A stretch of DNA of 42,316 nucleotides from Polyangia bacterium (GCA_030426845.1 JAUHXR010000038.1:1-42316); one strand, 5' to 3'; shown: positions 6,078-38,810, numbered from the stretch's first letter. Notes: generated from the letters alone by a model not told the origin. A program made the numbers and translations.

Positions 6078-6086
6078 CCCCGGGCG

Positions 6087-6092
6087 AGGATA
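6087..6092 (-). promoter_or_regulatory. -10-like TATCCT upstream of the BNR-type gene
   Basis: On the minus strand TATCCT lies 9 bases before ATG 6077, in the 40-base divergent gap shared with the hydrolase gene. Confidence 0.4.
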
Positions 6093-6117
6093 CGGGTCGG
6101 AGCCGACCGAACAAAGC

Positions 6118-6798
6118 GTGGCATGCTGCGGCGTGCCCGAGCTGACGGTGGACGGCCTCCCGGTGAGCTGGATCCGCGACGGGAAGGTCGGGGGCCGCCC
6201 GCTGCTCGTCCTGGCCCACGGCGCGGGGGCGCCCTACACGAGCGACTTCATGCGCGAGACCGCGCGCCGCCTGGCCGCTCGGGAGCTCTGCGTGGTGCGG
6301 TTCCACTTCCCGTACATGGAGCGGATGCACCGCGAGGGAGGGCGGCGGCCCCCCGACGGCAAGGCCCGGCTCCTCGCCACGTGGCGCGCGATGCTCGACC
6401 GGACGCGGCGGATGCGCGGGCACGGCCCGATCGTGATCGGCGGCAAGAGCATGGGCGGCCGGATCGCCTCGATGCTGGCCGCCGCGGGCGGCGCGGCCGA
6501 GGCGCGCGGGCTCGTGTACCTCGGCTACCCGCTCCACCCGCCGGGGAGGGTCGACAAGCTCCGCGCCGATCACCTCGGGGCGATCGAGGTCCCGCAGCTC
6601 TTCGTGCAGGGATCGAAGGACGCGCTCGCCGATCGTGGCGAGCTCGCCCGTGTGCTCTCAGGCGTCCGTGGCGCGCGCCTCGTCGAGGTGGAGGGCGGCG
6701 ACCACTCCCTGGCGCGATCGCGGCGAGACCCGATGCGCGACGCGGACGCGTGGATCGACGAGGTCGCGCGGTTCGTGAGCGAGGTCGCGACGCCCTGA
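6118..6798 (+). CDS. Alpha/beta hydrolase, KANL3/TEX30-type family
   Basis: 226 residues from GTG 6118; a GTG at 6133 giving MPELTVDG is an equally good start. The fold is clear: LLVLAHGAGAPYTSDF (oxyanion region), nucleophile elbow GGKSMGGR with the Ser, LFVQGSKDAL with the acidic residue, and GGDHSLARS with the His. The early motif RFHFPYMERM and the GKSMGGR elbow are typical of the small alpha/beta hydrolases related to KANL3/TEX30 and to dienelactone hydrolase-like proteins. Substrate unknown; bacterial members are mostly uncharacterised. No signal peptide, so cytoplasmic. It is followed by a convergent gene whose stop is 9 bases away. Confidence 0.85.
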   Translation: MACCGVPELTVDGLPVSWIRDGKVGGRPLLVLAHGAGAPYTSDFMRETARRLAARELCVVRFHFPYMERMHREGGRRPPDGKARLLATWRAMLDRTRRMRGHGPIVIGGKSMGGRIASMLAAAGGAAEARGLVYLGYPLHPPGRVDKLRADHLGAIEVPQLFVQGSKDALADRGELARVLSGVRGARLVEVEGGDHSLARSRRDPMRDADAWIDEVARFVSEVATP

Positions 6799-6807
6799 TC
6801 GCCGAGC

Positions 6808-7650
6808 TCAGCGCAGAGGCTCCCATCGGATCATCGCGCCGAGCAGCACCGCGACCTCGCCCGCGCGCCGCTCGTGGTGGGTGTAGGCGCCGACGCGGAC
6901 GAACGGCGTGATCGACCCGATCACGTCGAGCGGGCGGTCGCCCGCGAGCATCACCATCCCGCCGACCTGATTGGAGAGCCAGCCCGAGCGCGGGATGACG
7001 CGCAGCTCGTCGTAGGCGCCGAGGCGGAGCGACCAGCGGTCGGGGAGCGGGATCTCGAGCAGCGCCATCGCGTGGCTCCCGAAGATCTGATCGTGCCGCG
7101 CGAGAACCGCGTCGTGCCGGGCCGAGAAGTGGTACGGCGCGTCGCCCAGGCCGAGGTGCTCGACCGAGAGCTCGTCCCACAGGATGAGTCGCGCGTCGTC
7201 GATGGGGAACGCCATCTGGAGCGTCGCGGCCCCGAGCGCGCTGAAGCCGTGGGCCTCGCCCCCCGCGTCGGGCGCGAGGGACGGGACCGCGCCGTTGTCG
7301 CTCCCGTAGTACCCGGCGCCCGGCATGCCGATCGACCACACGTCCACCGAGGTCAGCTGGGCGCGCAGCACGAGGAACGCGAGCGGGCTCACCTCGACGT
7401 AGCCGCCCGACATCGAGTAGATGGGGGATAGATAGTTGACCGCCGCGATCTCGGCGTAGGTGCCCTGGGTGAGCAGATCGGAGCCGTCGCCCAGCTCGAG
7501 CCGCGCGCCCGCCGCGAGCATGTGCTCCCCGCCCATCGGGTTGACGACGCCGACGAGGCGCTCGTGGAGGACGAGGCGGGGCTGAGCCTGGGCGGGGGCG
7601 GCGGAGAGTACGGCGAGCGCGAAGGCGGAGGCGACGGGGGTGAGGCGCAT
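6808..7650 (-). CDS. Exported outer-membrane-like protein of unknown function
   Basis: 280 residues from ATG 7650, chosen because it opens a textbook Sec signal (MRLTPVASAFALAVLSAAPA then AQA). The in-phase frame continues far upstream but without a signal. The mature protein is made of alternating beta segments with aromatic girdle-like residues (GYVEVSPLAFLVLRAQLTSV, RWSLRLGAYDELRV, ITPFVRVGAYTHH) and ends in a strand with Trp, so an outer-membrane beta barrel is likely. It contains no recognised enzyme motif. It is divergent from the START-domain gene. The intervening 72 bases hold a 6-bp inverted repeat (7679-7694), and both genes have CATCCC exactly 6 bases before their ATG. Confidence 0.75.
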   Translation of the reverse strand: MRLTPVASAFALAVLSAAPAQAQPRLVLHERLVGVVNPMGGEHMLAAGARLELGDGSDLLTQGTYAEIAAVNYLSPIYSMSGGYVEVSPLAFLVLRAQLTSVDVWSIGMPGAGYYGSDNGAVPSLAPDAGGEAHGFSALGAATLQMAFPIDDARLILWDELSVEHLGLGDAPYHFSARHDAVLARHDQIFGSHAMALLEIPLPDRWSLRLGAYDELRVIPRSGWLSNQVGGMVMLAGDRPLDVIGSITPFVRVGAYTHHERRAGEVAVLLGAMIRWEPLR

Positions 7651-7678
7651 GGGGCGGGGATGCGCGAGGAGGTCCGTG

Positions 7679-7694
7679 CGGCTCGCGTGAGCCG
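7679..7694. repeat. Inverted repeat in a divergent promoter region
   Basis: CGGCTC and GAGCCG are separated by 4 bases midway between the divergent starts at 7650 and 7723. It could be a shared operator. Confidence 0.3.
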
Positions 7695-7722
7695 TCCGAG
7701 CGCGTCGCTGCATCCCTCGCCC

Positions 7723-8352
7723 ATGACCCAACGCCTCTCCCTCGCCCTCCCGCTGGCGGTCCTCCTCTGGCTCGCCCTCGCCTCGCTCGCCACCGCCACC
7801 GCCTCGGCCCAGTCGCGGGCCTTCTCCGCCGGGGAGCAACGCCGCCTCCTCTCGGGGGAGCTCGTCCGGCGCGACGCCTCCGGCGAACGCGAGGGCCGCC
7901 GCCTCTTCGGCGGCACGAGCTTCATCCGCGTGCGCGCGCCGCTCGACGAGGTCTGGGCCGTGGTCCGCGACCCCGCCCGCTACACCCGGCTCATCCCCTC
8001 GCTCGCTCGGGTCCGGGTGGTGGAGCGCCGCGACGAGCAGGTGCTCCTCTGGATGCAGCACCGCTACGCGCTGAGCACCACCGCGTACCACGCGACGATG
8101 CGCTTCGATGCTGCGGCCCACCGCGTGGAGTTCGAGCTCGACGCGAGCCGCCCCCGCGACGTCGACGGGGGGCGCGGGTTCCTCGAGCTCGCCTCCTACG
8201 AGGGCGACACGATCGTGAGCTGGGGGATGATCGCCGACGTGGGCGACGGGCTCGTCGCGCGGGTGTTCGGGCCGTTCCTGGCCGAGTGGCTGCTCAAGCC
8301 GCCGCGCTGCCTGCGTGACGAGGTCGAGCCGGGGCGGGTGAACCAGTGCTGA
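7723..8352 (+). CDS. Exported START/SRPBCC-domain protein
   Basis: 209 residues from ATG 7723, which opens a signal peptide (hydrophobic stretch LALPLAVLLWLALASLATA, cleavage near ASAQ). The body is a START-like SRPBCC domain: IRVRAPLDEVWAVVRDPARYTRLIPSLARV is the usual opening with the conserved W/V-D-P-x-x-Y pattern, followed by antiparallel strands and a final long helix. Such domains bind lipids or other hydrophobic ligands in a cavity; a periplasmic version suggests lipid handling in the envelope. Its last 7 bases overlap the start of the VTT gene, which in turn overlaps the SDR gene, so the three are very likely one operon. Ligand unknown. Confidence 0.85.
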   Translation: MTQRLSLALPLAVLLWLALASLATATASAQSRAFSAGEQRRLLSGELVRRDASGEREGRRLFGGTSFIRVRAPLDEVWAVVRDPARYTRLIPSLARVRVVERRDEQVLLWMQHRYALSTTAYHATMRFDAAAHRVEFELDASRPRDVDGGRGFLELASYEGDTIVSWGMIADVGDGLVARVFGPFLAEWLLKPPRCLRDEVEPGRVNQC

Positions 8353-8891
8353 GGCGCGCGCTGACGCGTCCCGGGCCGTGGCTCATCGCGGGGTTCCTCG
8401 CGGGGGCGTTCGTGCTCTACCGCTGGGTGGAGGCGTCCGGTGGACCGGCGCCCCTCATCGAGCGCTTCGGGGTCGTCGCTCCGGCGGTGATGGTCGCCAT
8501 CCAGGCCGCCCTGAGCGCCGCGCCGTTCCCGAGCGAGCTCTTCGCGCTCGTGAGCTCGGCGGCCTACGGCTTCTGGATCGGCACCCTGATCACGACGCTC
8601 GGGTGGATCGGCGGCTCGATGATCCAGTACGCGCTCGCCCGCCGCGGCGCGCAGGACCTGGAGCTCGCGCCGAAGCTCGAGCGCCTGCCCGGCTGGCTGC
8701 GGCGCGTGCCGGTCACGAGCCCCTGGTTCCTCGTCACGGTGCGGTGGCTCCCCATGGGCTTCCACCTCGCCAACGCGGTCGCCGGCGCGCGCCGCGTCCC
8801 TCCCCTGCGGCAGCTCTGGGTGGCCGCGCTCGGCTCGCTCCCGGTGGCCGCGTTCTGGGCCGCGGTCGGCGCGGGGATCTCGCCGTGGTGA
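8346..8891 (+). CDS. TVP38/TMEM64 (VTT-domain, DedA-related) membrane protein
   Basis: 181 residues from GTG 8346, overlapping the preceding stop. About five hydrophobic segments are visible. The VTT signature region is present: SAAPFPSELFALVSSAAYGF, where the conserved Pro-rich re-entrant loop sits, then GTLITTLGWIGGSMIQYALAR and, near the C-terminus, VRWLPMGFHLANAVAGARRV. Proteins of this superfamily include lipid scramblases and DedA transporters. With the START protein upstream and an SDR downstream, a role in moving or remodelling a lipid is a reasonable inference. The terminal overlap GTGA with the SDR start supports translational coupling. Confidence 0.85.
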   Translation: MLRRALTRPGPWLIAGFLAGAFVLYRWVEASGGPAPLIERFGVVAPAVMVAIQAALSAAPFPSELFALVSSAAYGFWIGTLITTLGWIGGSMIQYALARRGAQDLELAPKLERLPGWLRRVPVTSPWFLVTVRWLPMGFHLANAVAGARRVPPLRQLWVAALGSLPVAAFWAAVGAGISPW

Positions 8892-9766
8892 GCCTCGATC
8901 TGGCGGAGCGCCGGTTCGTCATCACCGGCGCGAACACGGGGGTCGGCCGCGCGACCGCGGAGGCGCTCGCGGCGCGCGGCGCGGAGGTCTGGCTCGCGTG
9001 TCGGTCCGAGGCGCGCGCGGCCGAGGCCCTCGAGACCATCGCGGCGGGGCCGGGGCGCGGGCGCTTCGTGGAGGTCGACCTGGGCTGCCTCGAGGGCGTC
9101 GCGCGCGCGGCCGACGCGCTGGCGGCGGTCGGTCCGTTCGACGCGCTGATCAACAACGCCGGGGTCGGCGGGGCGCGCGGTCAGACCGTCGACGGCTTCG
9201 AGCTCGCGTTCGGCGTCAACCACCTGGGGCACTTCCTGTGGACGCGGCGCCTGCTCGGCTCGCTCCGCTCGGGCGGGGTCGTGGTGCACCTCGGATCCGG
9301 CTCGCACGAGCGCGTAGGCCGGCCGCGCTTCGACGCGTTCCGACGACCGACGAGCACGCTCACGGGGGTGCGCGAGTACGCCACCTCGAAGCTCTGCGTG
9401 ATGCTCTTTCACCACGAGCTCTCGCGTCGCCTCGACGGCGTGAGCGCGCGGAGCATCGCGGTGGACCCCGGCGACGTCGCCTCGGACGCCTTCCGTCACG
9501 TCCCCTGGCTTCTCCGCGCGATCCTCACGCGCGGCATGCCCACTCCCGAAGCCGCGTGCGTCACCTCGGTGGCCTGCGCGACCGATCCGAGCTTCGCGCA
9601 CGGCGGCCTCTACGCCCACCTCGCGCCGCGGGCGCCCGCGCCCCTGACCCTCGACCTGAACCTGGCGGCGCAGCTCTGGGCGCGCAGCGAGGCGTGGGTC
9701 GAGGAGACGCTCGCGCGCGCCTCCCGCGGGCCCGCCCCGTCGCGTCGATCTCCCTCGGGAGGCTGA
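8888..9766 (+). CDS. Short-chain dehydrogenase/reductase (SDR)
   Basis: 292 residues from GTG 8888, which overlaps the VTT stop (GTGA); an adjacent GTG at 8885 is possible. A classical SDR: nucleotide loop TGANTGVG near the N-terminus, NNAGVGG for the central sheet, a Ser in HLGSGSHERV and the catalytic pair in YATSK. The text GFELAFGVNHLGHFLWTRRLL is characteristic of the retinol-dehydrogenase/WWOX-like branch. It should oxidise or reduce a hydroxyl/carbonyl with NAD(P)H; substrate unknown, but co-location with lipid-binding and VTT proteins suggests a hydrophobic one. The C-terminal 20 residues are low-complexity (RGPAPSRRSPSGG). Confidence 0.9.
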   Translation: MSLDLAERRFVITGANTGVGRATAEALAARGAEVWLACRSEARAAEALETIAAGPGRGRFVEVDLGCLEGVARAADALAAVGPFDALINNAGVGGARGQTVDGFELAFGVNHLGHFLWTRRLLGSLRSGGVVVHLGSGSHERVGRPRFDAFRRPTSTLTGVREYATSKLCVMLFHHELSRRLDGVSARSIAVDPGDVASDAFRHVPWLLRAILTRGMPTPEAACVTSVACATDPSFAHGGLYAHLAPRAPAPLTLDLNLAAQLWARSEAWVEETLARASRGPAPSRRSPSGG

Positions 9767-9818
9767 GCGCCCGCGCGATCGACTTGAGATCGGCGGCCGC
9801 GCGTGTACCTCGACCGGA

Positions 9819-10727
9819 ATGAGCGAACCAGACGACGCGGACAAGGCCGACAAGAACGGAACGAACGGGGCCAACGGCAGCCCGCCGCGCGTGGAGAAGC
9901 CGACCGACGCAGCCGCGTCGCACCCGCGAAAGCCGCCCGGCAAGGGGCGCAAGCGGATCAAGCGGCGCGACTACGAGTCCGAGCTGTCGGTGCTGCACGT
10001 CGAGCTCGCGAAGCTGCAGTCCTGGATCGCGGCGACCGGGCAGCGGATCGTGGTGATCTTCGAGGGCCGCGACGCGGCGGGGAAGGGCGGCACCATCAAG
10101 CGCCTCGTCGAGCCGCTCAACCCGCGGATCGCCCGCGTGGTCGCGCTCGGCACGCCGACCGAGCGCGAGCGGAGCCAGTGGTACTTCCAGCGCTACGTCA
10201 GCCACCTGCCGGCCGCGGGCGAGATGGTGGTGTTCGACCGCTCCTGGTACAACCGCGCCGGCGTCGAGCGCGTGATGGGCTTCGCGACCGAGGACGAGGT
10301 CCGCGAGTTCCTGTTCAGCGTCCCGCAGTTCGAGCGGATGCTCGCGCGCAGCGGCATCCGCATCCTCAAGTACTGGTTCTCGGTGAGCCCCGAGGAGCAG
10401 GAGCGCCGGTTCCAGGCGCGGATCGAGCACCCGACCAAGCGCTGGAAGATCAGCCCGATGGACATCGAGTCCCGCACGCGCTGGGACGAGTACTCGCGCG
10501 CCAAGGACGAGATGTTCGCGTACACCGACATCAAGCAGGCGCCCTGGTACGTGGTCGAGTCGGACGACAAGAAGCGCGCGCGCCTCAACTGCATCCACCA
10601 CCTGCTGAGCATGCTGCCCTACCGCGATCACATCCGACCGCCGATCGAGCTGCCCCCGCGGCGCCAGCGCGAGACCTACCTGCGACCTCCCTACGAGGAG
10701 CAGAACATCGTCCCGCGCCGCTTCTGA
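9819..10727 (+). CDS. ppk2: Polyphosphate kinase 2 (PPK2)
   Basis: 302 residues. PPK2 enzymes move phosphate between polyphosphate and nucleoside mono- or diphosphates. Visible motifs: Walker A GRDAAGKGG (83-91), the lid and Walker B region with VVFDRSWYNRAGVERVMGF (from 138), and the conserved SRTRWDEYSRAKDEM and C-terminal DDKKRARLNCIHHLL segments. The first about 50 residues form a polar, Lys/Arg-rich extension (AAASHPRKPPGKGRKRIKRRDYE) ahead of the kinase core. The single-domain length fits class I or III PPK2; the class cannot be settled by eye. Start ATG 9819 is the first in frame after the upstream gene. It converges with the TPR gene, 10 bases apart. Confidence 0.93.
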   Translation: MSEPDDADKADKNGTNGANGSPPRVEKPTDAAASHPRKPPGKGRKRIKRRDYESELSVLHVELAKLQSWIAATGQRIVVIFEGRDAAGKGGTIKRLVEPLNPRIARVVALGTPTERERSQWYFQRYVSHLPAAGEMVVFDRSWYNRAGVERVMGFATEDEVREFLFSVPQFERMLARSGIRILKYWFSVSPEEQERRFQARIEHPTKRWKISPMDIESRTRWDEYSRAKDEMFAYTDIKQAPWYVVESDDKKRARLNCIHHLLSMLPYRDHIRPPIELPPRRQRETYLRPPYEEQNIVPRRF

Positions 10728-10737
10728 GCGGCTCCGA

Positions 10738-14271
<3,534 letters not shown>

Positions 14272-28354: not shown

Positions 28355-28396
28355 TTGATTCTCATTCTCAGACCCGGTATTGAGAATCAGAATCAA
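28355..28396. promoter_or_regulatory. Fur-like operator: near-perfect 16-bp inverted repeat
   Basis: The arms TTGATTCTCATTCTCA (28355-28370) and TGAGAATCAGAATCAA (28381-28396) are complementary at 15 of 16 positions with a 10-base gap. The sequence is far richer in A+T than anything nearby and contains the GAATC/GATTC and TGAGAAT text of Fur-family sites. It ends 5 bases before the ribosome binding site of the DUF4856 gene, ideal for repression. Fur as the regulator is inferred from the motif and from the genes it precedes. Confidence 0.75.
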
Positions 28397-28413
28397 TGTC
28401 GGGAGACTTGAGC

Positions 28414-30030
28414 ATGGGAAGCATGGGTTCGGGGCGCGCCGTGGGCGCAGCGGGGTCGGAGTCGGGGTCGGAGTCGCGGACGCAGCGCGGGACGTCGCGG
28501 GCCGGGCGCGCGACGCGCTCGGCGTGGATCGGGTTGGCCTCGCTCGGGGTGGCGTCGCTGGGCCTCGCGGTCGGCTGCGACGACGGCGACGTGGAGGTCG
28601 ACGGCGGCGGCAGGGACGCGGGCCCGGTCGTGACCGACGCTGGGCCCCCCGGAGCCGTCCCCTCGGACTACGTGTTCGACAGTCGCTTCAGCCCGGGCAC
28701 CAGCAGCGTGAACCACGGCGGCCAGGCCGCGCGGCACGTGCTCCTCGAGGACATGGAGGGGTACGTCGAGGGGCTCACCCTCGCGATCGACAGCGGCGAC
28801 CCGCCCTTCGCCGACGGCGTGGAGGCGGGTGAGGTGACCGCGGGCCTCGAGTACTTCTTCAGCGTCCCGGGCGCCGACCGCGTTGACGATCCCATCCGGT
28901 TCACCACCGATCCGCCCCTCGCGCAGGCGACCTACGGTGACGTCTCGGGGAGCGCGTTCCTGCTCGAGAAGCTCGCGGGCAACGACACGTCCACGGACTT
29001 CCGCGACTGGTCGACCGACTTCGTGGGCTGGAACGACGCGAGCGTGTTCGCCGCGGGCGCCGACGTGAGCAACCCGACCGGCCTGGTGCGCGCGATGTTC
29101 GCGACGCTCGACGCGGCCGGGGTCGCGCGCGGCGCGGGCAGCCCCGCGATGAGCCCGGTCGCGAGCCCCGAGGCGCTGCCGGTCCACGTCACGCCCGAGG
29201 GCATCGACCTCGCCGAGCTGCTGAAGAAGTTCCTCCTCGGCGCGCTCGCCTTCCACCAGGCGGCCGACGACTACACGGACGACGACGTCGCCGACAAGGG
29301 CCTGCGCGCCGACAACACCGCGGCGGACGGCGACGCCCCCTACACGAGCCTCGAGCACGCCTGGGACGAGGCGTACGGCTACTTCGGCGCGGCCGCGTCG
29401 TACAACCGTCAGACCGCGGCCGAGCTCGCCGCGGGCCCGCCGTACGTCGATCGCGACATGGACGGCGCGATCGATCTGACCTCGGAGATGAACTTCGGGG
29501 TGAGCGTCTACGCGGCGCAGCGCGACAACGGCGCGATGGTCGCGACGGACTTCATGGGCACCGCGGGCGACGCGTTCCGCCGCGGCCGGCACATCATCTC
29601 CACCGCCGGCGGCGCGCTCGACACGGACCAGCAGGCCGCGCTCGTCGTGGAGCGCGACCGCGCGATCGGCGCGTGGGAGGCGGCGATGGCGGCGACGGTG
29701 ATCCACTACCTCAACGACACCCTTCAGGTGATGGCCGACTTCGAGACGCCGGCCTACGACCACGCGCGTTTCCTCGACCACGCCAAGGCGTGGTCGGAGA
29801 TGAAGGGCTTCGCGCTCGCGTTCCAGTTCAACCCGCGCTCGCCGCTGAGCCAGGCCGACTTCGCGATGCTCCACACCCTCCTCGGCGACCGCCCGGTGCT
29901 CGAGGCCGACGGGGCGACCGCCGCGGCCGACTACCGGGTCGCGCTGCGCGACGCCCGCGCGCTGCTCGCGGCTCGGTACGGGTTCGACGCGGCCAACCTC
30001 GGCGACGACGACGGCAACGGGGGGTGGTGA
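28414..30030 (+). CDS. DUF4856-domain lipoprotein of an iron-type operon
   Basis: 538 residues from ATG 28414, preceded by GGGAGA at 28401-28406; an ATG at 28396 in the same frame lies inside the operator and is less likely. A lipoprotein signal is visible after a long N-terminal tail (WIGLASLGVASLGLAVGCDDGD). An Asp/Gly linker follows, then a large helical domain of DUF4856 type: SVNHGGQAARHVLLEDMEGYVEGL, ELLKKFLLGALAFHQAADDY, SLEHAWDEAYGYFGAA and WSEMKGFALAFQFNPRSPL. From memory, DUF4856 genes often stand beside imelysin and TonB-receptor genes; I cannot verify this here. A surface or periplasmic iron-handling role is inferred from the operator and neighbours. Confidence 0.82.
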   Translation: MGSMGSGRAVGAAGSESGSESRTQRGTSRAGRATRSAWIGLASLGVASLGLAVGCDDGDVEVDGGGRDAGPVVTDAGPPGAVPSDYVFDSRFSPGTSSVNHGGQAARHVLLEDMEGYVEGLTLAIDSGDPPFADGVEAGEVTAGLEYFFSVPGADRVDDPIRFTTDPPLAQATYGDVSGSAFLLEKLAGNDTSTDFRDWSTDFVGWNDASVFAAGADVSNPTGLVRAMFATLDAAGVARGAGSPAMSPVASPEALPVHVTPEGIDLAELLKKFLLGALAFHQAADDYTDDDVADKGLRADNTAADGDAPYTSLEHAWDEAYGYFGAAASYNRQTAAELAAGPPYVDRDMDGAIDLTSEMNFGVSVYAAQRDNGAMVATDFMGTAGDAFRRGRHIISTAGGALDTDQQAALVVERDRAIGAWEAAMAATVIHYLNDTLQVMADFETPAYDHARFLDHAKAWSEMKGFALAFQFNPRSPLSQADFAMLHTLLGDRPVLEADGATAAADYRVALRDARALLAARYGFDAANLGDDDGNGGW

Positions 30031-30128
30031 GGTGACGGCACCGCGCGGGGCCTCGACGATGGGCCGAGGGCCGCGCCGCGCGGCCGTCTCACCCGTGGTT
30101 TCCGGTGGTTTCGAGTCGGCGGGCGCTC

Positions 30129-30134
30129 TAGGCT
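30129..30134 (+). promoter_or_regulatory. -10-like TAGGCT before the imelysin-like gene
   Basis: TAGGCT is followed by 8 bases and GTG 30143. It overlaps a perfect palindrome GGCTCGAGCC (30131-30140). It would be an internal promoter in the operon. Confidence 0.4.
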
Positions 30135-30142
30135 CGAGCCTC

Positions 30143-31345
30143 GTGCTTGCCCGATCTCTCGCGCCTGCGATCGCGCTCCTCCTGCTCGTGAGCTGCGACG
30201 GCGGGGACCCCGCGGACGCGGGGCCGCCCGACGGCCGCGCCGACTTCACACGGATGGTGCTCGCGAGCATCGGCGCCAACGTGATCGTCCCCTCGCAGGA
30301 CGACTTCGTCACCGCGGCGGCCGCGCTCGAGGTGGCGACCGCCGCGTTCGCCGCCGACCCGACCGACGCGAACCGCGCGGCGGCCCAGGAGGCGTGGCGC
30401 GCCGCGATCGACGCGTGGGAGCTCGTCGAGGTGATGCAGATCGGGCCCGCGGGCATGGGCGGGATCACGACCGGCATCGTCGGCGGCATGGACGTCCGCG
30501 ACGAGATCTTCACCTACGAGCAGACGAGCGCGTGCCGGATCGACCAGGAGACGGTGGAGGCCGCCCACGGCGATCCGGAGCTGCTCGCGGCCGAGCTCGT
30601 GAACGTGCGCGGGCTCGACGCGCTCGAGTACCTGCTGTTCGTCGACACGGACGAGAACGCCTGCAGCGCGCTCACCCCGATCAACGCCGAGGGGACCTGG
30701 GCCGCGCTCGGGACCGACGGCGTGCGGGCGGCGCGCGCGACCTACGCCGCCTCGGCCGCGACCCTCGTCTCCCGCGAGGCGGTGCGGCTCCAGGCCGCGT
30801 GGGCGCCGACCGGCGGGGCCCACCTCACCACGCTCTCGGAGGCCGGCCTCGACGGCAACGCCTACGTGGCCGCCCAGACCGCGCTCAACGAGCTCGCCGG
30901 CGCGATGCTCTACCTCGACGGCGACACGCGCGACATGAAGCTCGCCGAGCCCGCGGGGATCGCTGGCTGCCTCGAGGCGACGTGCCCCTCGGCGCTCGAG
31001 CTGCCCCACGCGGCGCACGGGGGCGCGGCGATCGCGATCAACATGCGCGCCTTCGCGTACGTCTACTACGGCTCGCGCACCGGGGCGGACACCCTCGGGT
31101 GGGACGATCTGCTCGTCGAGACGGGCAACGCGGCGCTGGAGGTCGAGCTCTCGGCCGCGGTCGAGGCCGCGGTCGCGGCCTGCGACGCGCTCGGGCCCTC
31201 GCTCCAGGACGCGATCGCCACCGACATGCCGGCGGTGATGGCGGCCTACGACGCGATCAGCGAGGTGCTGCGGCTGTTCAAGGGCGACGTCTTCACCGCG
31301 CTCGACGTCCAGCCGAGCGGCCCCAACGACGGCGACAACGACTGA
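30143..31345 (+). CDS. Imelysin-like (M75/IrpA-type) lipoprotein
   Basis: 400 residues from GTG 30143, giving the compact lipoprotein signal MLARSLAPAIALLLLVSC (Cys 18); GTG 30032 would add 37 residues in front and is less likely. Helical imelysin-like protein: AAQEAWRAAIDAWELVEVMQIGP, RGLDALEYLLFVDTDENAC, RLQAAWAPTGG, AFAYVYYGS. The family signature GxHxxE appears as GLDALE, with His replaced by Asp and Glu kept, as in the imelysin-like branch that is not a peptidase. Imelysins are exported proteins tied to iron uptake in several bacteria (for example IrpA). It sits between the DUF4856 gene and the HTTM gene in the same direction, consistent with one operon, perhaps with an added internal promoter. 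Confidence 0.87.
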   Translation: MLARSLAPAIALLLLVSCDGGDPADAGPPDGRADFTRMVLASIGANVIVPSQDDFVTAAAALEVATAAFAADPTDANRAAAQEAWRAAIDAWELVEVMQIGPAGMGGITTGIVGGMDVRDEIFTYEQTSACRIDQETVEAAHGDPELLAAELVNVRGLDALEYLLFVDTDENACSALTPINAEGTWAALGTDGVRAARATYAASAATLVSREAVRLQAAWAPTGGAHLTTLSEAGLDGNAYVAAQTALNELAGAMLYLDGDTRDMKLAEPAGIAGCLEATCPSALELPHAAHGGAAIAINMRAFAYVYYGSRTGADTLGWDDLLVETGNAALEVELSAAVEAAVAACDALGPSLQDAIATDMPAVMAAYDAISEVLRLFKGDVFTALDVQPSGPNDGDND

Positions 31346-31351
31346 GGCGGC

Positions 31352-32719
31352 GTGATCGAGCGTCTCCGCGCGCGGGCCCATCGGCCCACGGACGTCGCGT
31401 CCCTCGCGGCGCTCCGCGTCCTGTTCGGCCTGCTGATGGTCGGCGCGCTCGCGCGCTACTTCGTCAACGGCTGGGTCGACGCGTTCTACGTGCAGCCGAC
31501 GTTCACGTTCCAGTACTGGGGCTTCGGCTGGGTGCGCCCGCTGCCCGAGCCGTTCATGAGCGGGCTCTTCATCGCGCTGATCCTCGCGGCGGCGTTGATC
31601 GCGCTCGGGCTGTTCTACCGGGTGGCGGCGCCCGTGTTCTTCCTCGGCTTCACCTACGTCACGCTCCTCGACGTCACCCGCTACCTCAACCACTACTACC
31701 TCGTCGTCCTCCTCGCGGCGCTCTTCGCGGTCCTCCCGCTCCACGCGGCGTGGTCGCTCGACGCGCGCCGCGACCCGGCGCTCGCCGCGCGCACGGTGCC
31801 GGCGTGGATGCTCTGGGTGGTGCGCTTCCAGGTCGGGGTGGTCTACGTCTTCGCGGGGCTCGCGAAGGTCGGGCCCGACTGGCTGCTCCACGCGCAGCCG
31901 CTGACCATCTGGCTCGGCGCGCGCACCGAGCTGCCGGTGCTCGGGCCGCTCTTCGAGCTGCCGTGGATGCCGCTCGCGATGAGCTGGGCGGGGTGCCTCT
32001 ACGACCTGACGATCGTCGGGTGGCTGTCGTGGCGGCGGACGCGCCCGTATGCGTTCGCGGTGCTCTGCGCGTTCCACCTCACGACGCACCTGCTCTTCTA
32101 CATCGGGATCTTCCCGCTCGTGATGACGGTGGCCGCGACGGTGTTCTTCGAGCCGGACTGGCCGCGCCGGCTCGCGCGCCGCCTCGGCCGCGTGCTCCCC
32201 GACGCGGGGGGCGACCTCGCGGCGCGGTGGCGGGTGCCCGCGTGGGGCGCCGCGCTGCTCGCGGCCTACGTCGGAGCGCAGCTGCTCGTGCCGCTGCGCG
32301 TCTACCTCTACGCGGGGGACCACCTGTGGCACGAGCAAGGAATGCGTTGGGGTTGGCGGGTGATGCTTCACGAGAAGAACGGCACGGTTCGTTACCGGGT
32401 GCGCTTCGACGGACGCGAGCGTGAGCTCCACGTCGCGCCGCGCGACTACCTCACGGTCGATCAGGCGCAGGAGTTCTCCGCGCAGCCCGACCTCATCCTC
32501 CAGCTCGCCCACCACATCCGCGACGACTACGAGGCGCGCGGGCGGACCGGCGTCGAGGTGCGGGTCGACGCCTGGGCGGCGCTCAACGGGAGGCCGTCGG
32601 CGCGGCTCATCGATCCGGACGTGGACCTCGCCCGGGTGGAGGACGGCCTCGCGCCGGCCGCCTGGATCCTCCCCGCGCCGCCGCACACGCCGCGGCAGCA
32701 GCTCGCGGAGGCGCGGTGA
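31352..32719 (+). CDS. HTTM-domain protein, vitamin K-dependent gamma-carboxylase-like
   Basis: 455 residues from GTG 31352, 6 bases after the imelysin-like stop. An HTTM membrane domain occupies about residues 15-270 with several helices: SLAALRVLFGLLMVGALARYF, YLNHYYLVVLLAALFAVLPLHAAWS (H114, which I align with His160 of human GGCX), and VVRFQVGVVYVFAGLAKVGPDWL (K172, aligning with the catalytic-base Lys218). A soluble beta-rich tail follows (GMRWGWRVMLHEKNGTVRYRV), also typical. Human GGCX carboxylates Glu to gamma-carboxyglutamate using reduced vitamin K; bacterial relatives are largely uncharacterised. Its stop overlaps the TonB receptor start (GTGA). Catalytic residues appear kept, so an active enzyme is plausible, acting on a partner in the operon or on a small molecule. 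Confidence 0.85.
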   Translation: MIERLRARAHRPTDVASLAALRVLFGLLMVGALARYFVNGWVDAFYVQPTFTFQYWGFGWVRPLPEPFMSGLFIALILAAALIALGLFYRVAAPVFFLGFTYVTLLDVTRYLNHYYLVVLLAALFAVLPLHAAWSLDARRDPALAARTVPAWMLWVVRFQVGVVYVFAGLAKVGPDWLLHAQPLTIWLGARTELPVLGPLFELPWMPLAMSWAGCLYDLTIVGWLSWRRTRPYAFAVLCAFHLTTHLLFYIGIFPLVMTVAATVFFEPDWPRRLARRLGRVLPDAGGDLAARWRVPAWGAALLAAYVGAQLLVPLRVYLYAGDHLWHEQGMRWGWRVMLHEKNGTVRYRVRFDGRERELHVAPRDYLTVDQAQEFSAQPDLILQLAHHIRDDYEARGRTGVEVRVDAWAALNGRPSARLIDPDVDLARVEDGLAPAAWILPAPPHTPRQQLAEAR

Positions 32720-35298
32720 CCCGCGTGGGTATGGGTTGGCTCGGTGTCGCCGCCTTCGTGGTGGGCCTCGCCTCGGTCGCCTCGACCGCGGCCGCTCAGG
32801 CCGACGCGGGCGTGCCGGACGCGGGCGTGCCGGCCAGCGGGCCGGACGGAGGACCGCCGGACGCCGGACCGCCGGACCGATCGCCGGACGCCGGACCGCC
32901 GGACCGATCGCCGGACGCCGGACCGCCGGGGGACCTGGCCGACGGGGACGGCGCGGGCGAGGACGCCGGTGAGGACGAGGGCGGCGAACACGGCGACGAG
33001 GAGGTCGGGGACTCGCTGTTCGACCTGTCGGACGAGGACGTGCTCGGTGGCGGCGCGGACGACGGTCCGCCCGAGCACTTCGAGGACACGCCGAGCCTCG
33101 GCGAGATCGTCGACGACGAGCGCGACCTCGAGGTCACCGGCGTCGTGGTCACCGCGCGCGCGATCGACGAGGAGCGCGCGCCGGACACCGGCGGCGCGGT
33201 GCAGCGGCTCGACGAGGAGCTGCTCGAGCGCTTCAACTACGACAACCCCGACGCGGTGCTCCAGCAGGTCCCGGGCGCCTATGTGCGACAGGAGGACGGC
33301 TACGGCCTGCGGCCCAACATCGGGCTCCGGGGCGTCTCGAGCGAGCGCTCGAGCCGGATCACCCTGATGGAGGACGGCATCCTCTTCGGGCCCGCGCCCT
33401 ACGCGGCGCCGGCGGCCTACTACTTCCCCGTGATGACCCGGATGACCGGCGTCGACGTGTACATGGGCGCCGCCACCGTGCCTTACGGCCCGAACACGGT
33501 CGGCGGCGCGATCGACCTGCGCAACCGCGACATCCCGCGCGACGCGGACGGCGCGCTCGACCTCGCGCTCGGCGCGAACTTCTTCGGGCGGGCGCACGGC
33601 TGGGTCGGCGCCTCGAACGACTGGGGCGGCTTCGCCCTCGAGGGCGTCTACCTCCACAGCGACGGCTTCAAGCACATCCGGCTCGCGCCCGACGCCGACA
33701 CCGGCTTCGATCGCGGCGAGATCGTCCTGCGTGGAGAGCTGCACGGTTCCTTGCCAGGCGACGCGTACCAGCGGCTCGAGCTGCGCCTCGGCTTCGCGGG
33801 CGAGTCGAGCCGCGAGACCTACCTCGGCCTCACGGACGCGGACTTCGCCGAGGACCCGTACCAGCGCTACCCCGCGAGCCAGCTCGGGCACATGAGCTGG
33901 TGGCGCACCCAGCTCCAGCTCCGCCACACCCTCGAGGTCGGCGAGGGCTTCGTGCTCCGCAGCGCCGCCTACCGGCACGACCTCGACCGCTCGTGGCTCA
34001 AGGTGAACGCCATGGGCAGCCTGCCGCTCCCCGGCGTGCCGCAGTCGCGGGTGGATCTGTTCGACGTGCTCAACGAGGCGGATCGCGGCGTCAACGCGCT
34101 GTACGCGAGCGTGCTGCGCGGGGTCGAGGACGGCGGGCTCGATCCGACGGCCGAGGACTACGTCCTGATCGGGACGAACGCGCGCTACTTCGGCGCGACC
34201 GGCGTGCAGTCGGTGGGCACCGGGCGCTTCGAGACGGGCCCGCTCTCGCACGTCATCCAGGTCGGCGCGCGGCTCCACCACGACGCGGTGGATCGCAACC
34301 ACACCGAGGACGCCTACAGCACGATCGGCGGCGAGCTCGTGCGGGCGACCGACGAGAGCTACACGACGCGCCTCACCCACGCCGAGTCGCTCGCGTTGAG
34401 CCTCCACGCGGCGTACACGCTCACGCTCTTCGACCGGGTCACCCTGACGCCCGGCGTCCGCGCGGAGCTGATCTGGACGCGCTTCGAGGATCTTCAGAGC
34501 GGCGATCGGCAGCCGCAGCAGTTCCGCGCCGCGGTGCTCCCGGGGGCGAGCGCCGAGTGGCGGATCATCGACGAGCTCGCGGTCTTCGCCGGGGTGATGC
34601 GCGGCTTCGCGCCGGTGGCGCCGGGGCAGGCCCCGTCGGTCCAGGCCGAGGACTCGATCAGCTACGAGGCGGGGGCGCGCTTCACCCACGCGCCGTCCCG
34701 GACGAGCGCGCTCCTGACGGGCTTCGTCAACGACTACTCGAACTACCTGCAGCAGTGCTCGTTCTCGTCGGGCTGCGCCAACGACGACATCGACGATCAG
34801 GCCAACGGCGGGCGGCCCCTCGTCGCCGGCTTCGACGTCCGGGTCGGCGTCGAGCCCCGGGTGGGCAGCCTGCGCTTTCCGCTCCGCGCCTCCTACACCT
34901 TCACCTTCAGCGAGTTCCGCGAGGACGTCCTCGACTCGCCGAGCCCGCTCTTCGCGGGCGCGACGGAGGGGGACGCGCTGCCCTACCTGCCGCAGCACCA
35001 GGTGGCCGCTCAGGTGGGCCTGGAGCACGACGACGTCGGGGTGAACGTCGGGGCGACCTACGTCACCGAGATGCTCGAGCAGGCCGGCCGCTTCGGCGAG
35101 GACGGGGTGGTGCACACCGACGCGCAGTTCCTCCTGGACGCGACCGTGTACCTCCAGGTCTTCGACAACCTCCGGCTCTACGTGCGCGGCGAGAACCTCA
35201 CGTTGACGCAGGTGGTGGCGGCGCGCCGGCCCTTCGGCGCGCGCCCGAACCGGCCCTTCCAGATCCAGGGCGGCCTGCGGATCACCGCCGACCGCTGA
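32716..35298 (+). CDS. FecA-like TonB-dependent outer-membrane receptor
   Basis: 860 residues from GTG 32716, overlapping the HTTM stop. Signal peptide (WLGVAAFVVGLASVASTAAAQA), then an unusual N-terminal extension of about 110 residues. It begins with DAGPPD repeats and becomes strongly acidic (GEDAGEDEGGEHGDEEVGD). A plug domain follows (VTGVVVTARAIDEE, then VLQQVPGAYVRQEDGYG, RPNIGLRGVSSERSSRITLMEDGI, PYAAPAAYYFP, YGPNTVGGAIDL), with the text of the ferric-dicitrate FecA branch. The beta barrel extends to GENLTLTQVVAARRPFGARPNRPFQIQG at the C-terminus. It imports a ferric chelate or other ligand using TonB energy. The substrate is inferred from FecA likeness and the Fur-type operator. A terminator hairpin overlaps its stop. 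Confidence 0.93.
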   Translation: MTRVGMGWLGVAAFVVGLASVASTAAAQADAGVPDAGVPASGPDGGPPDAGPPDRSPDAGPPDRSPDAGPPGDLADGDGAGEDAGEDEGGEHGDEEVGDSLFDLSDEDVLGGGADDGPPEHFEDTPSLGEIVDDERDLEVTGVVVTARAIDEERAPDTGGAVQRLDEELLERFNYDNPDAVLQQVPGAYVRQEDGYGLRPNIGLRGVSSERSSRITLMEDGILFGPAPYAAPAAYYFPVMTRMTGVDVYMGAATVPYGPNTVGGAIDLRNRDIPRDADGALDLALGANFFGRAHGWVGASNDWGGFALEGVYLHSDGFKHIRLAPDADTGFDRGEIVLRGELHGSLPGDAYQRLELRLGFAGESSRETYLGLTDADFAEDPYQRYPASQLGHMSWWRTQLQLRHTLEVGEGFVLRSAAYRHDLDRSWLKVNAMGSLPLPGVPQSRVDLFDVLNEADRGVNALYASVLRGVEDGGLDPTAEDYVLIGTNARYFGATGVQSVGTGRFETGPLSHVIQVGARLHHDAVDRNHTEDAYSTIGGELVRATDESYTTRLTHAESLALSLHAAYTLTLFDRVTLTPGVRAELIWTRFEDLQSGDRQPQQFRAAVLPGASAEWRIIDELAVFAGVMRGFAPVAPGQAPSVQAEDSISYEAGARFTHAPSRTSALLTGFVNDYSNYLQQCSFSSGCANDDIDDQANGGRPLVAGFDVRVGVEPRVGSLRFPLRASYTFTFSEFREDVLDSPSPLFAGATEGDALPYLPQHQVAAQVGLEHDDVGVNVGATYVTEMLEQAGRFGEDGVVHTDAQFLLDATVYLQVFDNLRLYVRGENLTLTQVVAARRPFGARPNRPFQIQGGLRITADR
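32860..32928 (+). repeat. 27-base tandem repeat encoding DAGPPDRSP
   Basis: Two full copies and a partial third encode DAGPPDRSP-DAGPPDRSP-DAGPP at the start of the receptor extension. Confidence 0.9.
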
Positions 35299-37414: not shown

Positions 37415-38713
37415 TCAGGCGCGCGCGCGGGCGAGGAACCAGGCCTTCGCCGCGTGGGTGACCGCCCGACCCACCGCCTTCCACTCGAGGCCGGCGGCCG
37501 CGAGCGCGTCGCCGCTCTCCGCGCGCACGTCCTGGCCGATCCACTTGAGGAAGGCCCCGAGGGCCTTCGGGCTCGCGCCGTCCGGGCAGGCTTCGGCGAG
37601 GCCCTGCTCGAGGCGCGCGTCGGTGACGAAGGTCTCCACGAGCTCCTCGATCGAGCGCGCGACCGCGGGGTCTACCTCGACCGCCGCGCCCGCCTTGCGG
37701 ACGCGGTGGCGCTCACCCTTGGCCTTGAACATCAGCGACGTGATCGCGTCGCGGTCCGTCGCGCGCTCCCCGCCGAGCGTCGGGTAGAGCACGAGCCCCT
37801 CGCCGACGCCCTCGAACCCGAAGGTCTCGCGGACCCAGGGGTCGATCGACTCGATGGCCTCGACCTCCGCGTTGAGCTTGGCGACCGCGGTCTCCGGATC
37901 GGCGAAGTCGATCGCGATCGGCGCGCCGTGCCACGGGAGCACGAACACGTCCGGGTGCGTGGGCGCCAGCGCGGCGAGCGCCTCGGGCTCGATGACGAGG
38001 GTCGCCGCCTCGCGCGCCGGGTCCCCGAGCATCGCCGCGAAGATCACGAACACGCGCCGGTCGAGCCGGGTCACCGCGACCCCGCGCTGCACGCCGGGCC
38101 CGCACCACTCCCCGTAGAGCGTGAGGTGTCGATCGCGGGCGAGCGCCGCGAACGCGGGCTCGTTCGCGAGCACCCACGCGGCGAAGCCGAGGTTGTCCTC
38201 CGCGGGCGTGATCACCCGGTTGCGCGCCTGTGCGATCACGCCGCCGTCTGGCGTGACCTGGACGCCGGAGTTGGTCCCGTGGAGCTTCACCTTGGCCCGG
38301 TAGGTGACGACCGGCGGGGGCTCGCCGAGGGCCTCCGCACGCGCGAGCGCCTCGCCCCGCACGTTGTGGAGCAGCTCGATCTTGGTCCACTTCAGGAGCT
38401 GGCCGTCGGCGAGCGAGCGCTCCGGCTGGCAGCGGCCCTCCGACAGGTCGGTGCCCGGCGCGGCGTCGACCGGACCCATCGCCATGCCGCGCGAGGAGAC
38501 GCCCCGCAGCTTCACCGGGCGGATCGCGGTGCCGTCGAGGAGGGTCGTTCCCGCCAGCGCCACCATCGCCACGTCGCCCACCGCGTAGGTGTGCTCCTGG
38601 TTCGCGACCACCTGCACGGCGGCGCGTCCCGGCGCCTCGAGCGTGTACACGCGCAGGCTGTCGGCGTTGGGGTGGTCGGCGACCGCGGTCACCTTCATCG
38701 CGAGGATCGGCAT
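37415..38713 (-). CDS. RNA ligase, Rnl5/DraRnl-like, with N-terminal OB domain
   Basis: 432 residues from ATG 38713 (GGAG 7 bases upstream). The N-terminus (MKVTAVADHPNADSLRVYTLE, KLRGVSSRGMAMG) is an OB fold like the tRNA-binding domains. The nucleotidyltransferase domain follows with motif I KLHGTN (K143 the AMP-bound Lys), YGEWCGPGVQRGVAVT (motif III region), GVGEGLVLYP (motif IV) and LMFKAKGERHRV (motif V, Lys pair). A helical tail ends the protein. OB-first order matches the Deinococcus RNA ligase DraRnl (Rnl5), which seals nicks having a 3'-OH RNA end. The gene likely works in RNA or mixed RNA/DNA repair. Its leader is unusual: a possible 29-residue ORF followed by a terminator-like hairpin lies between msrA and this gene. 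Confidence 0.87.
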   Translation of the reverse strand: MPILAMKVTAVADHPNADSLRVYTLEAPGRAAVQVVANQEHTYAVGDVAMVALAGTTLLDGTAIRPVKLRGVSSRGMAMGPVDAAPGTDLSEGRCQPERSLADGQLLKWTKIELLHNVRGEALARAEALGEPPPVVTYRAKVKLHGTNSGVQVTPDGGVIAQARNRVITPAEDNLGFAAWVLANEPAFAALARDRHLTLYGEWCGPGVQRGVAVTRLDRRVFVIFAAMLGDPAREAATLVIEPEALAALAPTHPDVFVLPWHGAPIAIDFADPETAVAKLNAEVEAIESIDPWVRETFGFEGVGEGLVLYPTLGGERATDRDAITSLMFKAKGERHRVRKAGAAVEVDPAVARSIEELVETFVTDARLEQGLAEACPDGASPKALGAFLKWIGQDVRAESGDALAAAGLEWKAVGRAVTHAAKAWFLARARA

Positions 38714-38779
38714 CGGAGTTCTCCAGGGGTCGGGTCGAGAGAGACAGACAAACAAGGGAAAGAGACAGAGAAACGAAGC

Positions 38780-38810
38780 GAGCCCCCTCTGGCGTCGCCG
38801 GAGGGGGCTC
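38780..38810 (-). terminator. Perfect 10-bp hairpin with pyrimidine tail in the RNA-ligase leader
   Basis: GAGCCCCCTC (38780-38789) pairs perfectly with GAGGGGGCTC (38801-38810); the 11-base loop has an inner GGCG/CGCC pairing. On the minus strand it is followed by about 40 bases almost purely of T and C. It could end msrA transcripts or act as an attenuator for the RNA ligase gene, whose ATG is 66 bases further on. Confidence 0.7.

What the first reader, a model, noticed from the sequence alone, without database searches (positions are those of the whole stretch)
28355..35298. Iron-type operon: Fur-like palindrome, DUF4856, imelysin-like, HTTM, FecA-like receptor
A near-perfect 16-bp inverted repeat (15 of 16 paired, A+T rich, Fur-style text) sits directly before the ribosome binding site of the first gene. 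Four genes follow in one direction, with a short overlap between HTTM and receptor. Imelysins and FecA-like receptors are known from iron uptake; DUF4856 and HTTM proteins are poorly characterised. The set reads as a complete surface uptake unit with an unknown chelate as cargo.
Basis: partly seen in the sequence, partly recalled or inferred. Interest (0 to 1): 0.75.

Follow-up and report, generated by a model that had tools for sequence, protein, structure and literature searches.

The report
Iron-uptake operon with vitamin-K carboxylase homologue
This is a Fur-controlled bacterial iron-uptake operon that carries a close relative of the human vitamin-K-dependent carboxylase, and it shows that such bacterial carboxylase relatives mostly sit beside an imelysin whose last residues are Asp-x-Asp, which makes the unknown job of these enzymes testable.

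Summary
A 15-of-16 inverted repeat (28355-28396) lies directly before a four-gene operon: DUF4856 lipoprotein, imelysin lipoprotein, HTTM protein and TonB-dependent receptor. The Fur reading holds computationally. The best genome-wide matches to the repeat's arms sit upstream of hmuY/receptor, bfd-bfr/FecCD, tonB/chaN and feoAB genes, and relatives carry perfect Fur boxes before the same operon. In Riemerella an operon of this composition is iron- and Fur-regulated (PMC5609570).

The HTTM protein is a vitamin-K-dependent gamma-carboxylase (VKGC) homologue with the catalytic Lys218, Asn159 and His160 equivalents intact (157 of 157 relatives). In an unbiased phylum sample, 65 of 76 such genes lie directly downstream of an imelysin. 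Those imelysins end exactly in Asp-x-Asp-COOH (123 of 124; 1 of 40 imelysins without an enzyme in the operon). In sister operons the VKGC is replaced by a membrane fatty-acid-hydroxylase-type oxygenase, fused to the receptor or to the imelysin, and the tail stays.

I propose that the enzyme acts on, or docks to, the imelysin's C-terminal tail. The partnership is well supported; the chemistry is inference. "FecA-like" is weak. The cargo is unknown.

The parts
28355..28396 (.). Fur-box-like inverted repeat, two arms each matching TGAGAATNAGAATCA
   Evidence: 15 of 16 pairs, 38% G+C; arms are the best matches in the 9.4-Mb genome, and the other best sites lie at hmuY/receptor, bfd-bfr/FecCD, tonB/chaN, feoAB and a second imelysin operon
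28414..30030 (+). DUF4856 lipoprotein (alternative ATG at 28396); ends in Trp-COOH
   Evidence: PF16148 3e-14; AlphaFold2 model pLDDT 91.5, all-helical, no clear PDB match; C-terminal W in 57 of 59 relatives of the phylum set
30143..31345 (+). Imelysin lipoprotein (signal ends LLVSC); last residues NDGDND, i.e. Asp-x-Asp-COOH
   Evidence: PF09375 2.6e-25; fold matches IrpA 4ecg Z 33.9, ICMP 7xrx 33.8, 3pf0 31.7; tail counts
31352..32719 (+). HTTM + VKGC lumenal domain: vitamin-K-dependent gamma-carboxylase homologue (455 aa)
   Evidence: PF05090 1.2e-85, PF22777 1.6e-42; human GGCX residues 50-504, E 1e-36; K172, N113, H114 correspond to human K218, N159, H160
32716..35298 (+). TonB-dependent receptor with acidic, Pro/Asp-rich N-terminal linker; start overlaps the VKGC stop by 4 bases
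   Evidence: PF00593 1.2e-26, PF07715 8e-12; nearest solved structure FecA, plug region only

Best explanation
A Fur-repressed iron-acquisition operon. In iron-replete cells Fur sits on the 28355-28396 box and blocks transcription; in iron shortage the four genes are made together. The receptor brings an iron source across the outer membrane. The imelysin and the DUF4856 protein are membrane-anchored, helical accessory proteins that receive or hand over the iron. The VKGC-type enzyme, in the inner membrane, is a dedicated partner of the imelysin: using menaquinol and O2 as the human enzyme does, it modifies the flexible Asp-x-Asp C-terminus of the imelysin, most likely by adding a carboxylate to an Asp side chain to make a metal chelator. 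In sister operons a membrane oxygenase of the FA_hydroxylase family takes the same role and could hydroxylate the same Asp. My own layer-by-layer estimates: Fur-controlled iron operon 0.9; enzyme and imelysin are functional partners 0.75; the tail is the site of modification 0.35. Shown here: sequence, gene linkage, catalytic-residue and tail conservation, genome-wide Fur sites. Inferred: substrate, chemistry, cargo, direction of iron flow.
For: Fur: best sites genome-wide are at iron genes, with 17 hits against 0 for the reversed control pattern (the pattern was built from four of these sites). Ten relatives carry a perfect 14/14 Fur box before the same operon. Riemerella RNA-seq. Linkage: 65 of 76 VKGC genes in an unbiased phylum sample and 71 of 79 in named genomes follow an imelysin directly. 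Catalysis: human K218, N159, H160 invariant in 157 of 157; W223, F286, F299 invariant and F294 nearly so (residue roles from PMC12589487). Tail: Asp-x-Asp-COOH in 141 of 142 imelysins directly followed by VKGC or FA_hydroxylase, against 6 of 45 others, 5 of which have the enzyme elsewhere in the operon or fused. The tail is flexible in the model (pLDDT about 55). Swap: FA_hydroxylase in frame with the receptor or with the imelysin itself; about six VKGC/FA_hydroxylase changes on the imelysin tree with the tail kept.
Against: No Glu column in imelysin or DUF4856 is specific to VKGC operons, so classical Glu-to-Gla marking of these proteins finds no support. Several human substrate-recognition residues (N158, K217, Y425, R436) are replaced. 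Carboxylation of Asp by this enzyme family is recalled from memory as weak, and my library search found no paper on it. Typical FA_hydroxylase active sites face the cytosol (general knowledge), which fits poorly with a periplasmic tail. The tail-enzyme association rests on few independent gains or losses (3 changes on the tree). 11 of 76 VKGC genes are not next to an imelysin, and their neighbours lack the tail.
Confidence: 0.55

Rival explanations
1. The membrane enzyme does not modify a protein. It acts on the imported iron chelate or on a membrane quinone or lipid (for example breaking or altering the chelate to release iron), and the Asp-x-Asp tail of the imelysin only docks to the enzyme or binds metal.
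For: Human Glu- and propeptide-recognition residues are not kept while the quinone and base residues are. Two unrelated O2-using membrane enzyme families occupy one slot, as expected if a shared small substrate matters.
Against: The tail is tied to the enzyme and absent from other imelysins, including paralogues in the same operon; a generic metal site would be expected there too.
Confidence: 0.3
2. Classical gamma-carboxylation: the enzyme converts Glu residues of the imelysin, DUF4856 protein or the acidic receptor linker to Gla, which then bind iron.
For: Enzyme family, intact Lys218/His160 equivalents, acidic receptor linker in the window.
Against: No Glu conserved specifically in VKGC-linked partners; several Glu columns are better conserved in FA_hydroxylase-linked partners. 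Propeptide-binding residues are missing.
Confidence: 0.12
3. The operon serves another metal, and the box belongs to another Fur-family regulator; the genome has a second Fur-family gene.
For: Two Fur-family genes; imelysins are not proven ferric-iron binders (PMC3143127).
Against: Sites with this motif lie at feoAB, bfd-bfr, hmuY and FecCD genes. The Riemerella operon of the same composition responds to iron and Fur.
Confidence: 0.07
4. The tail is a lineage relic of one imelysin subfamily and says nothing about the enzyme; gene order is kept only by operon inheritance.
For: Few independent changes on the tree (3 each).
Against: The tail is kept to the last residue while the rest of the protein falls to 21-25% identity. 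It is kept in two paralogous operon types and through repeated enzyme swaps.
Confidence: 0.12

Closest known systems
Riemerella anatipestifer RAYM_09779-09794 (TonB-dependent receptor, vitamin K-dependent gamma-carboxylase, imelysin lipoprotein, hypothetical protein), PMC5609570
   Same: Same families in the same order; raised under iron shortage and in the fur mutant by RNA-seq.
   Different: Listed only in a table there, not described as a system; Fur binding to this promoter was not among the four tested; identity of RAYM_09794 as DUF4856 is my inference.
Human gamma-glutamyl carboxylase GGCX (PDB 9wfn, 9bum and others)
   Same: Aligned over residues 50-504; Lys218, Asn159, His160, Trp223, Phe286, Phe294, Phe299 kept.
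   Different: No counterpart of the C-terminal third; propeptide, Gla-backbone and disulfide residues (Y425, R436, K217, C99, C450) not kept.
Pseudomonas aeruginosa PA4370-PA4373, Fur-regulated imelysin operon (PMC3143127)
   Same: Imelysins in a Fur-regulated operon; the window's genome has a similar imelysin / di-haem oxidoreductase / imelysin operon on contig C200, followed by a second VKGC gene and preceded by a Fur-like box.
   Different: PA4370-4373 is described with imelysins and a di-haem enzyme; a VKGC is not mentioned there.
EfeUOB/EfeM ferrous-iron transporter
   Same: EfeO/EfeM share the imelysin fold (Z 21-22).
   Different: No EfeU permease or EfeB peroxidase in this operon; instead a receptor and a VKGC.
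MbnH/MbnP (di-haem enzyme that modifies a copper-binding partner; from memory)
   Same: Works-like parallel only: an oxidative enzyme paired with a metal-binding surface protein near a TonB-dependent receptor.
   Different: Different enzyme, partner and metal; not tested here.

Membership tests
Fur box | Match to the 7-1-7 consensus TGATAATNATTATCA near the start of iron genes | tested here: met
   Each arm matches 11 of 14 positions of the plain consensus (3 mismatches); position directly before the start; shared motif at other iron genes; perfect boxes in relatives
Fur box | Binding by Fur protein and iron-dependent repression | not testable with these tools
   Only indirect: Riemerella RNA-seq of an operon of this composition (PMC5609570)
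Vitamin-K-dependent gamma-carboxylase (GGCX/VKGC) family | HTTM membrane domain plus VKGC lumenal domain | tested here: met
   PF05090 and PF22777 far over cut-off
Vitamin-K-dependent gamma-carboxylase (GGCX/VKGC) family | Catalytic base Lys218 with Asn159/His160 and the quinone pocket | tested here: met
   Invariant or nearly so in 157 relatives
Protein gamma-glutamyl carboxylase of the animal type (narrower claim) | Propeptide/Gla recognition residues of the animal enzyme (Y425, R436, K217) | tested here: not met
   V, E and A in the window protein; so a member of the VKGC family, but not shown to be a protein gamma-glutamyl carboxylase
Vitamin-K-dependent gamma-carboxylase (GGCX/VKGC) family | Carboxylase and quinol epoxidase activity | not testable with these tools
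   Sequence only; needs enzyme assay
Imelysin superfamily | Two four-helix-bundle imelysin fold | tested here: met
   Model pLDDT 91; 4ecg Z 33.9 rmsd 2.6 over 319 residues
ICMP and IrpA families within the imelysins | GxHxxE motif | tested here: not met
   Window has GLDALE, the GxxxxE variant that PMC3143127 assigns to the IPPA/PA4372 family
FecA ferric-citrate receptor | FecA equivalog score and N-terminal signalling domain | tested here: not met
   70 bits against cut-off 1100; no signalling domain by Pfam
EfeUOB | EfeU permease and EfeB peroxidase in the operon | tested here: not met
   Neither family in the four operon proteins
DUF4856 (PF16148) | Pfam gathering score | tested here: met
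   53 bits against 22.3

The most novel reading that the evidence does not exclude
Bacterial vitamin-K-dependent carboxylase homologues mainly serve iron uptake: they (or an interchangeable FA_hydroxylase-type oxygenase) convert the C-terminal Asp-x-Asp of a partner imelysin into a built-in iron-chelating group (beta-carboxy- or beta-hydroxyaspartate), a protein modification not known to me in iron acquisition.
Probability: 0.25. Interest if true: 0.92.

Novelty: new variant of a known kind. Interest (0 to 1): 0.72.

Why it matters
Vitamin-K-dependent carboxylase is known for blood clotting, and the role of its bacterial homologues has been unclear; one in Leptospira was put down to horizontal transfer (PMC4555120). 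Here most such genes in a large bacterial phylum, with catalytic residues intact, sit next to an imelysin in an iron operon. That gives them a probable function and a concrete substrate candidate, the Asp-x-Asp tail. It also gives imelysins, whose biochemical role is unsettled, an enzymatic partner and a defined end to test. The repeated replacement of the enzyme by an unrelated membrane oxygenase with the tail retained is a natural experiment on what the enzyme is for.

Tried and rejected
Gla hypothesis on conserved Glu of imelysin/DUF4856: no VKGC-specific Glu column. DUF4856 as a diverged imelysin: profile comparison negative; fold searches gave only middling helical matches such as vinculin and alpha-catenin, which leaves its fold relation open. 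Tail as a tag for all VKGC enzymes: VKGC genes outside imelysin operons follow TamB-like, Fic-like and other genes whose products do not end in Asp-x-Asp. Trp-COOH of DUF4856 as a universal mark: holds in the Myxococcota set, not in Bacteroidota. First imelysin tree had some rows read in a wrong frame; redone with frame check. Independent-pairs test for tail against enzyme: only 2-3 pairs, no power. Searching Bacteroidota as a separate centre failed for lack of a handle. Paper searches for imelysin with HTTM or DUF4856, for Asp carboxylation by VKGC, and for fatty acid hydroxylase together with imelysin or TonB-dependent receptor found nothing on this system beyond the Riemerella table; the library holds open-licence papers only.

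Full report
What is there. The window is contig C48 of a 9.4-Mb genome; the window is 73% G+C and its closest VKGC relative among named genomes is from a Sandaracinaceae MAG (63% identity). The inverted repeat at 28355-28396 is real, 15 of 16 pairs with a 10-bp spacer, in the most A+T-rich stretch of the window. An ATG touches its right arm at 28396; a GGGAGA site and an in-frame ATG at 28414 follow. Four + strand genes then run to 35298: DUF4856 lipoprotein, imelysin lipoprotein (true start probably GTG 30143, signal ending LLVSC), an HTTM protein and a TonB-dependent receptor whose GTG start overlaps the HTTM stop.

Fur box. The genome has a strong Fur homologue and a second Fur-family frame. 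The arm TGAGAATGAGAATCA has only four other matches with up to two mismatches: the second arm, two overlapping registers at C317 and one at C137. C317 separates a HmuY lipoprotein from a divergent receptor; C137 separates bfd-bfr from a divergent FecCD permease. A wider pattern built from these sites gives 17 hits against 0 for the reversed control; the additional ones include tonB/chaN (C33), feoAB (C457), an Rrf2 regulator (C145) and some without an evident iron gene. A second imelysin/VKGC operon at C200 carries TGAGAACGACTCTCA in an A+T-rich island just before its first imelysin. Upstream of the related operons the best 7-1-7 match averages 10.5 of 14 against 8.7 in shuffled sequence; ten loci have a perfect match such as TGATAATCATTATCA. 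Fur control is therefore the best reading, and RNA-seq of Riemerella shows iron/Fur regulation of the same set: receptor, vitamin K-dependent gamma-carboxylase, imelysin, hypothetical (PMC5609570).

Co-occurrence. DUF4856 occurs in 61 of 282 phylum genomes. Of 40 such loci read with flanks, most carry imelysin and receptor on the same strand in the order DUF4856-imelysin-(HTTM)-receptor; several of the exceptions are at contig ends.

The HTTM protein is a VKGC homologue. It has both VKGC domains and aligns with human GGCX 50-504 at E 1e-36. Lys218, Asn159 and His160 equivalents are invariant in 157 of 157 relatives. By the residue roles in PMC12589487, the quinone pocket (Trp223, Phe286, Phe294, Phe299) is kept, but residues that hold the animal substrate (Asn158, Lys217, Tyr425, Arg436) are not. 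So the quinol-driven base chemistry is probably intact and the substrate different. The genome also encodes VKOR-family proteins.

VKGC goes with imelysin. A search for the VKGC lumenal domain in 282 phylum genomes, blind to neighbours, found it in 68. Of 76 VKGC genes with readable upstream sequence, 65 follow an imelysin directly on the same strand; in 79 genes from named genomes of several phyla it is 71. There are three layouts: DUF4856-imelysin-VKGC-receptor (this one); imelysin / di-haem oxidoreductase / imelysin-VKGC, as in the genome's own C200 operon; and receptor-imelysin-VKGC.

The tail. VKGC-linked imelysins end exactly in Asp-x-Asp-COOH (single-imelysin operons: 97 of 98; second imelysin of two-imelysin operons: 25 of 25). 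The first imelysin of two-imelysin operons, not next to the enzyme, does so in 1 of 27, and that one is in an operon with the enzyme further on. In the full tally, 141 of 142 imelysins with VKGC or FA_hydroxylase directly downstream have the tail; the exception, L117, ends in an unrelated sequence and appears frame-shifted. Of 45 others 6 have it: three have VKGC elsewhere in the operon, two have FA_hydroxylase fused to the imelysin, one (L057) is unexplained. Fisher P is 1e-32, but genes are related by descent: on a tree of 110 imelysins, enzyme presence and tail each change about three times, too few for a paired test. The strength lies rather in the tail being kept to the last residue while sequence identity falls to 21-25%, and through about six enzyme swaps. 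In the AlphaFold2 model the tail is flexible (pLDDT about 55) beyond an otherwise confident imelysin fold.

Enzyme swap. In DUF4856-imelysin operons without VKGC, an FA_hydroxylase-type domain lies in one uninterrupted frame with the receptor in 13 loci (Pfam-checked in two, PF04116; the rest by the same histidine-rich sequence), with a signal-peptide-like stretch between them. In two further loci it is fused to the imelysin itself. Both enzyme families are integral-membrane and use O2 (established knowledge of the families). This argues that the slot needs an oxidative membrane enzyme acting with the imelysin.

Mechanism. Steps supported here: Fur site, operon, family identities, intact catalytic residues, enzyme-imelysin partnership. 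Steps inferred: that the enzyme modifies the tail, that the product chelates iron, and the route of iron. The alternative that the enzyme works on the imported chelate or a lipid is nearly as likely. Classical Gla formation on conserved Glu is disfavoured.

Limits. Many loci are from metagenome assemblies. Frames were read stop to stop, so fusions are sequence-level claims. No biochemical claim is tested. The literature library is open-licence only; prior description elsewhere cannot be excluded.

Noticed in passing
L236 (contig C200 of the same genome) 5769-10765: Second imelysin/VKGC operon: imelysin, di-haem oxidoreductase (DHOR), imelysin, VKGC, with a Fur-like box TGAGAACGACTCTCA just before the first imelysin.
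   Followed up: yes
L039, L041, L043, L045, L046, L047, L054, L063, L064, L068, L069, L071, L075 (L070 interrupted): FA_hydroxylase-type domain in one uninterrupted frame with a TonB-dependent receptor, an inner-membrane enzyme joined to an outer-membrane protein with an internal signal-like stretch.
   Followed up: partly
L305 1432-3558 (-), L307 394-2523 (+): FA_hydroxylase fused to the N-terminus of an imelysin that ends in Asp-x-Asp.
   Followed up: partly
window 28414-30030 and relatives: DUF4856 proteins of the Myxococcota set end in Trp-COOH (57 of 59); those of Bacteroidota do not.
   Followed up: partly
L233, L267, L273: VKGC genes without imelysin follow directly after a gene that looks like tamB (C-terminus YWRWRF/YLRWRF), a second possible context for bacterial VKGC.
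   Followed up: no
L284 (contig C408:10307): Fur-like site TGAGAACGATTCTCT directly before a lipoprotein-like gene of unknown family, a possible further Fur target.
   Followed up: no
window 38779-38810: G+C-rich inverted repeat GAGCCCCCTC...GAGGGGGCTC, probably a terminator hairpin.
   Followed up: no
window 37418-38755 (-): Protein with RNA_ligase and tRNA-binding domains (PF09414, PF01588).
   Followed up: no
window 32840-32930: Short tandem repeats coding a Pro/Asp-rich linker between the receptor's signal peptide and plug.
   Followed up: no
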